40,583 nt of DNA from a virus. The stretch covers positions 1 to 40,583 of IMG/VR virus record IMGVR_UViG_3300004463_000109; one strand, given 5' to 3'. Under the pieces are notes generated by a model, which was given only the letters and a program-made list of their open reading frames with translations, had not been told where the DNA came from and made no database searches. Below, piece by piece: positions 8,116-8,191 of the stretch; within the stretch, counting starts at the first letter, position 1; each line of letters begins with the position of its first letter. A program made the position numbers and the translations under genes.

Positions 8116-8191
8116 TAGGGTCAAAATCACAGGGCGAACCCTGAGCTTGGAATCGAACCAAATATACCTAAGTATTTGCTGTGCGACCCTA
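8116..8191 (-). ncRNA. Y-RNA-like element 5: capped T-arm/acceptor mimic
   Basis: Stem TAGGGTC (8185-8191) pairs with GACCCTA (8116-8122), followed by GT. CACAGCAAAT follows the first strand. The insert has a small hairpin ATAC-TTAG-GTAT where the anticodon arm would be. Next is a canonical T arm (TTTGG, loop TTCGATT, CCAAG; 8146-8162), stacked on a 7-bp acceptor-like helix CTCAGGG/CCCTGTG with one mismatch and a TTCG loop (8128-8145). No D arm is present. This is a minimal tRNA top half with no free 3' end, so it cannot be aminoacylated. A possible extended -10 (TGATATAAT) lies just upstream at 8199-8207. Confidence 0.7.

What the first reader, a model, noticed from the sequence alone, without database searches (positions are those of the whole stretch)
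8116..8191. Minimal T-arm plus acceptor minihelix capped by UUCG (element 5)
Seen: within the same CAGCAA frame, a canonical T arm is stacked on a 7-bp helix ended by UUCG, with a short hairpin in place of the anticodon arm and no D arm. It shows the insert can be trimmed to the part recognised by T-arm modifying enzymes (TruB, TrmA), EF-Tu, RNase P or the CCA enzyme. It may be an intermediate of tRNA-mimic decay or a deliberate decoy.
Basis: partly seen in the sequence, partly recalled or inferred. Interest (0 to 1): 0.7.

Follow-up and report, generated by a model that had tools for sequence, protein, structure and literature searches.

The report
Phage Y RNA with T-arm insert
The minihelix is the changeable top of a small non-coding RNA that a phage encodes beside its own Ro60-like RNA-binding protein; it is one of six such RNAs in a row, and the same RNA handle recurs hundreds of times beside this protein in other phages and prophages, mostly unannotated.

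Summary
The element is real and lies on the minus strand (8191→8116). A 7-bp outer stem and a CAGCAA motif frame a short hairpin, a canonical T arm, and a 7-position helix (6 pairs, one U·U) capped by UUCG. T arm plus adjacent helix arose in 2 of 100,000 shuffles of the insert, none with a UUCG cap. It is not a free-standing tRNA remnant. It is the fifth of six Y RNA-like elements between a perfect sigma-70 promoter and a terminator, directly downstream of a phage Ro60-like gene (PHROG 850; closest solved folds are Deinococcus Rsr and vertebrate Ro60). The frame [7-bp stem]-NNN-CAGCAA…[stem]-G occurs 414 times on the Ro strand and once on the other strand in 160 Ro loci. It was not convincingly found beside canonical TROVE genes. 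Inserts vary: none, permuted tRNA (YrlA-like), normal-order tRNA, T arm only, or, as here, T arm plus capped acceptor without a D arm. The D-less form recurs in three further unrelated loci; one homologous pair shows six two-sided compensatory changes and no broken pair, so decay is unlikely. The closed acceptor end argues against RNase P, EF-Tu and the CCA enzyme as partners. Ro binding, expression and the partner remain untested.

The parts
8116..8191 (-). Y RNA-like element 5 (the finding): outer stem, NNN-CAGCAA, 5' hairpin, T arm, UUCG-capped acceptor helix, no D arm
8128..8145 (-). capped acceptor-like helix CUCAGGG-UUCG-CCCUGUG (6 pairs and one U.U)
8146..8162 (-). canonical T arm UUUGG-UUCGAUU-CCAAG
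8164..8175 (-). 5' hairpin AUAC-UUAG-GUAU; CUUAGG-like apex shared with L033/L034 elements
8176..8181 (-). conserved CAGCAA motif, three bases after the 5' strand of the outer stem
8913..8963 (-). Y RNA-like element 1, no tRNA module; starts at the predicted transcription start
8826..8890 (-). Y RNA-like element 2, no tRNA module, outer stem with a terminal C.A
8685..8804 (-). Y RNA-like element 3 with permuted tRNA module (YrlA-like: T arm, capped acceptor, D arm)
   Evidence: Rfam YrlA 45.9 bits, E 8.4e-9, below the gathering score of 69
8435..8548 (-). Y RNA-like element 4: permuted tRNA module with anticodon-like arm (loop CUGUUAA), UUCG-capped acceptor and D arm
7997..8097 (-). Y RNA-like element 6: no tRNA module, conserved insert GGTGATNTGGCTATCCCC...TGAATCGTACATTC
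   Evidence: 88% mean column identity with L003 6012-6113
8969..8997 (-). perfect sigma-70 promoter TTGACA-17-TATAAT in front of the array
7947..7987 (-). terminator-like GACCCTCC...GGAGGGTC-T7 at the array's end (18-nt loop, so outside the scanner's limits)
   Evidence: read from sequence
9001..10485 (-). phage Ro60-like RNA-binding protein, 494 aa (DUF2828 + DUF7788, PHROG 850)

Best explanation
The element is a phage-encoded Y RNA-like RNA. Its outer stem with the CAGCAA strand is the handle by which the neighbouring Ro60-like protein binds it. The insert above the handle (hairpin, T arm, UUCG-capped acceptor helix) is an exposed effector module that imitates the elbow-to-acceptor half of a tRNA and docks a T-arm-recognising partner onto the Ro ring, much as bacterial Y RNAs tether Rsr to PNPase or offer a tRNA-like surface. 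The six elements are probably co-transcribed from one strong promoter, and each offers the same Ro a different insert. Shown here by computation: the array, the frame, its specific association with Ro-like genes, the Ro60-like fold of the gene product, recurrence of the D-less insert and compensatory change in it. Inferred: Ro binding, expression, tethering, and which partner recognises the T arm (the tethering step alone I would put at about 0.4).
For: Neighbour gene: PHROG 850 'RNA-binding protein' E 1.3e-135; 49% identical to mycobacteriophage 'Ro-like RNA binding protein', 675 phage records; AlphaFold model: D. radiodurans Rsr (2nvo) top in Foldseek, E 1.4e-5, and the first 9 VIA-align rows are all Ro60/Rsr, best Z 13.7, 274 aligned residues, rmsd 6.7. 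Frame: in 160 loci fetched by the Ro protein, 414 frames with a following G on the Ro strand against 1 on the other strand; 50% of CAGCAA sites framed against a median of about 1% for random hexamers; spacer of exactly 3 in 414, 46 at spacer 4, 4-10 at spacers 0-2 and 5-7. tRNA-module inserts: 101 of 512 distinct frames carry a T arm; YrlA match in element 3. D-less T arm + capped helix also in L033, L034, L121, L188 with fold z -4.7, -3.8, -3.1, -5.1; L033 versus L034: six two-sided compensatory changes, one one-sided, no broken pair. Syntenic element of L003 keeps T arm and UUCG-capped helix with compensatory differences. Perfect promoter. Literature: bacterial Y RNAs bind Rsr by the basal stem and partners by the upper module; YrlA is a substrate of DusA and TruB (PMC8394870).
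Against: No binding or expression data for this phage. The model of the Ro protein is of moderate confidence (mean pLDDT 71, pTM 0.62), and no TROVE Pfam match was found. The target's fold z-score (-1.96) is weaker than those of its analogues. The capped helix has a U.U mismatch. 411 of 512 frames have no recognisable T arm, so tRNA mimicry is not the general function of the family.
Confidence: 0.75

Rival explanations
1. Deliberate decoy: still a Ro-associated Y RNA, but the insert titrates a host or phage tRNA enzyme (TruB, TrmA or another T-arm binder) rather than tethering it to Ro.
For: Canonical T loop UUCGAUU closed by G-C and a 12-position coaxial T/acceptor stack; YrlA is a TruB substrate and its tRNA-like domain was proposed as a competitive inhibitor of an anticodon nuclease (PMC8394870, PMC7790460).
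Against: No anticodon arm, so no decoy for anticodon nucleases; a decoy does not need a conserved Ro handle.
Confidence: 0.2
2. Decay intermediate: a YrlA-like Y RNA losing its tRNA module (D arm already gone).
For: The syntenic element of L003 still has a D arm; the helix has one mismatch; fold z only -1.96.
Against: The L003 and window helices differ at several pairs and most differences keep pairing; D-less inserts recur in unrelated loci and keep pairing in L033/L034.
Confidence: 0.12
3. Intrinsic terminator or processing hairpin: the UUCG hairpin ends or punctuates the array transcript.
For: The scan lists CAGGGTTCGCCCTG-TGATTTTGAC as terminator-like.
Against: Weak U-run (4 T); a sixth element and a better terminator follow; analogues L033, L034, L121, L188 have the capped helix without a strong U-run.
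Confidence: 0.03
4. Free-standing minimal tRNA or split-tRNA substrate of RNase P, the CCA enzyme and EF-Tu.
For: The phage encodes a CCA-adding-enzyme-like protein (19639-20583).
Against: ARAGORN finds no tRNA; the acceptor end is closed by UUCG, no CCA end can form, no anticodon arm.
Confidence: 0.02

Closest known systems
YrlA-type bacterial Y RNAs (Rfam RF02553; Salmonella, Mycobacterium)
   Same: End-to-end stem next to a Ro60-family gene; tRNA-like module with T arm and capped acceptor in permuted order.
   Different: No D arm in the target; no Rfam hit to the target; the window's Y RNA-like elements match YrlA only over the tRNA module (model positions 23-89) and use a CAGCAA frame, whereas the canonical TROVE loci examined carry YrlA matches and, apart from one GC-rich coincidence, no such frame.
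D. radiodurans Y RNA / RYPER (Rsr-Y RNA-PNPase)
   Same: Y RNA as tether between a Ro ring and a partner (PMC4726728).
   Different: Partner of the phage module is unknown; no sequence relation tested.
Vertebrate Y RNAs
   Same: Seven-base-pair Ro-binding helix with conserved unpaired bases and variable loops (PMC4726728).
   Different: The unpaired signature here is NNN-CAGCAA on the 5' strand; no sequence homology tested or claimed.
Putative Y RNAs of Listeria phage CKA15
   Same: Non-coding transcripts near a DUF2828 gene, proposed to be Y RNAs (PMC12282133); I find three CAGCAA frames just upstream of that gene.
   Different: The passages I read define no motif; the one stated coordinate range (26,236-26,727) does not contain my three frames (25,290-25,552).
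Ro60 of Thermus phage phiLo (PDB 9l5y)
   Same: Phage Ro60-family protein with solved structure, structurally similar to the window's model (Z 12.2, rmsd 5.8, 304 residues).
   Different: Not found by sequence profile at E up to 1; its RNAs were not examined here.

Membership tests
Y RNA (Ro-associated small RNA) | Encoded with a Ro60-family protein | tested here: met
   association in 149 of 160 loci
Y RNA (Ro-associated small RNA) | 5' and 3' ends pair into a stem with conserved unpaired bases | tested here: met
Y RNA (Ro-associated small RNA) | Bound by the Ro protein through that stem | not testable with these tools
   needs a binding assay
YrlA (Rfam RF02553) | T arm and capped acceptor in permuted order | tested here: met
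YrlA (Rfam RF02553) | D arm after the acceptor | tested here: not met
   5 nt between helix and outer stem
YrlA (Rfam RF02553) | Score above the curated threshold | tested here: not met
   no hit for the target; elements 3 and 4 at 45.9 and 21.3 bits, threshold 69
tRNA | Cloverleaf with free acceptor end and anticodon arm | tested here: not met
Ro60/Rsr protein family (neighbour gene) | Ro60-like fold, helical repeat ring plus vWA domain | tested here: met
   (moderate-confidence model)
Ro60/Rsr protein family (neighbour gene) | TROVE Pfam domain (PF05731) by sequence | tested here: not met
   the protein is DUF2828 + DUF7788
CAGCAA-frame Y RNAs of Ro-like (DUF2828) loci, as defined in this report | 7-bp stem, 3-nt spacer, CAGCAA, closing strand followed by G, on the Ro strand | tested here: met

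The most novel reading that the evidence does not exclude
Phage and prophage Ro60-like proteins (DUF2828) use their own class of Y RNAs, set apart by a CAGCAA frame and encoded as arrays of up to about nine RNAs with interchangeable inserts, so that one Ro ring can be fitted with many different adaptors; the D-less T-arm/acceptor insert is one standard adaptor.
Probability: 0.45. Interest if true: 0.75.

Novelty: new variant of a known kind. Interest (0 to 1): 0.6.

Why it matters
Y RNAs have been studied experimentally in few bacteria, and what their tRNA-like tops do is open. A motif that pulls out hundreds of candidate Y RNAs beside one protein family, several per phage, with inserts ranging from none to a near-complete tRNA, turns module function into a comparative and testable question: which parts of the tRNA shape are kept, lost or replaced. 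The D-less T-arm/acceptor form is a natural minimal test case. It also offers an explanation for unannotated non-coding gaps beside DUF2828 genes in well-known phages (FelixO1, Listeria, Campylobacter and mycobacteriophages).

Tried and rejected
Rfam at gathering threshold found only the tmRNA; ARAGORN found no tRNA. Blastn of the array against phages gave mostly matches of the element 3 tRNA module, many to ordinary tRNA genes. Pattern search with the element 6 core gave L011 (the same contig as L003) and five other contigs (L010, L012-L015); none of these five showed an array in the strict frame scan. Loci without a clear frame include L008, L024 and L026 (L026 was fetched by RNA similarity, not by Ro). 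One frame in a TROVE locus (L189) is a GC-rich stretch judged coincidental. MAFFT alignment of the target with its L003 counterpart misaligns the T arms, so pairs were compared from the structures. The key papers (Chen 2014, Sim and Wolin 2018, Wang 2018) are not in the library, so I cannot say whether the CAGCAA frame was already reported. A PDB profile search by sequence gave no Ro match. L033 and L034 elements are homologous (86% mean column identity) and count as one occurrence of the D-less form. L034 5805-5922, also listed as short-tailed, is a normal-order insert with a doubtful helix and is not counted.

Full report
Observation. The finding is on the minus strand, RNA 8191→8116. It folds (-22.2 kcal/mol, z -1.96) into a 7-bp outer stem, the hairpin AUAC-UUAG-GUAU, the T arm UUUGG-UUCGAUU-CCAAG, and the helix CUCAGGG-UUCG-CCCUGUG directly after the T stem (6 pairs and a U·U), followed by only five bases before the outer stem closes. 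There is no D arm. In 100,000 dinucleotide shuffles of the insert a T arm appeared 65 times, a T arm with adjacent capped helix twice, and never with UUCG; the only other place in the window that passes the test is element 3 of the same array.

Surroundings. The stretch 8997→7947 (minus strand) begins a few bases after the stop codon of a 494-residue gene with a perfect TTGACA-17-TATAAT promoter, whose predicted start falls at the first base of element 1. It contains six elements of the form [stem]-NNN-CAGCAA...[stem]-G and ends in a terminator-like hairpin followed by seven T. In the whole window 5 of 19 CAGCAA sites have a perfect 7-bp frame against a background of 0.9% per site (P about 6e-7); the sixth site of the array has a 6-bp stem with a terminal C·A. 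Elements 1, 2 and 6 have no tRNA module; element 3 is a YrlA match (E 8.4e-9, below the gathering score); element 4 is a permuted tRNA shape with an anticodon-like arm, UUCG cap and D arm; element 5 is the finding.

The neighbour gene is the key. It belongs to PHROG 850, Pfam DUF2828 plus DUF7788, and is 46-49% identical to 'Ro-like RNA binding protein' of mycobacteriophages, with 675 phage records. An AlphaFold model (mean pLDDT 71) has D. radiodurans Rsr and two Ro60 complexes as its three best Foldseek matches; in the second look the first nine rows are all Ro60/Rsr structures, including Ro60 of Thermus phage phiLo. The TROVE Pfam model does not match by sequence. So this is a divergent Ro60-like protein, and RNAs with paired ends next to it are Y RNA candidates.

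Generality. I fetched loci by the Ro protein: 80 viral and 80 from bacterial genomes, the latter probably prophages in many cases, plus named phages. In the 160 loci the frame with its following G occurs 414 times on the Ro strand and once on the other; 149 loci have at least one; half of all CAGCAA sites on the Ro strand are framed against a median of about 1% for random hexamers; the spacer is three bases in 414 cases, four in 46, and other values give 4-10. Named phages with frames include FelixO1, Listeria cka15, Campylobacter CJLB-10, Enterococcus EfsSzw-1, Bacillus vB_BcoS-136, Aeromonas LAh_8 and mycobacteriophages. Canonical TROVE genes from genomes of the same family as Mycolicibacterium sphagni have YrlA matches nearby but no convincing CAGCAA frame. 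The frame thus goes with this Ro clade; that it is the Ro-binding site is an inference.

Inserts. Of 512 distinct frames 101 carry a T arm. They fall into permuted tRNA shapes, normal-order D-anticodon-T shapes, T arm beside the stem, and a small D-less class of T arm plus capped helix: the window, L033 and L034 (homologous to each other), L121 and L188, with fold z-scores of -3.1 to -5.1 for the latter four. L033 and L034 differ by six two-sided compensatory changes, one one-sided change and no broken pair. The window's element and its syntenic counterpart in L003 (76% identical Ro) share T arm and UUCG cap while the helix changed on both sides at several pairs, each keeping one mismatch at a different position; L003 keeps a D arm. 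A 5' hairpin with a CUUAGG-like apex directly after CAGCAA is shared with L033 and L034, so the target's short hairpin probably corresponds to that hairpin and not to an anticodon arm; this is moderate evidence.

Mechanism. Most likely the outer stem and CAGCAA bind Ro and the insert is an exposed module that recruits a partner able to read a T arm stacked on an acceptor-like helix. Known Y RNAs work this way in outline: basal stem to Rsr, upper module to PNPase, YrlA modified by TruB and DusA (PMC8394870; PMC4726728). TruB or TrmA remain candidates. RNase P, EF-Tu and the CCA enzyme need a free acceptor end and are unlikely (established biochemistry, not tested here). In Listeria phage CKA15 the homologous Ro protein was detected in purified virions and non-coding RNAs near it are among the most abundant phage transcripts, which its authors suggested may be Y RNAs (PMC12282133); the coordinates stated there do not cover my three frames, so this is only suggestive.

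Novelty. Y RNAs and YrlA-type tRNA mimics are known, also in mycobacteriophages (as cited in PMC12282133). What I did not find in the readable literature is the CAGCAA frame, multi-RNA arrays with interchangeable inserts, and the D-less class. The primary papers could not be read, so novelty claims are provisional. Filed as a new variant of a known kind.

Noticed in passing
window 7997-8097 (-); L003 6012-6113: Element 6 has a strongly conserved non-tRNA insert (GGTGATNTGGCTATCCCC...TGAATCGTACATTC) of unknown function shared with L003.
   Followed up: partly
window 8192-8434 (-) and 8549-8684 (-): Two non-coding stretches inside the array outside any CAGCAA frame; the second folds into a long hairpin (z -2.1), the first is unassigned (z -1.2).
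   Followed up: partly
window 12969-13667, 18169-19011, 19639-20583, 24267-25202, 25209-26480 (all -); tmRNA 37523-37886 (-): RNA-related and other genes in the same phage: TrpRS/TyrRS-like protein of 232 aa, Tet/JBP oxygenase, CCA/poly(A) polymerase-like protein, polynucleotide kinase-phosphatase, RNA ligase, and a tmRNA, but no ordinary tRNA gene in the window.
   Followed up: no
L019 931-1054; L073 1893-2015; L112 2431-2536 and other clostridial loci: Y RNA frames whose insert is a tRNA shape in normal D-anticodon-T order, so the Ro stem takes the place of the acceptor stem.
   Followed up: partly
L046 2705-2811; L107 1389-1478; L019 1997-2088: Inserts with an anticodon-like arm whose loop CUUCAAC would read as anticodon UCA.
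   Followed up: no
L020 3664-3926 (OR088597 25290-25552): Three frames in Listeria phage cka15 just upstream of the Ro gene, whose protein was detected in purified virions (PMC12282133).
   Followed up: partly
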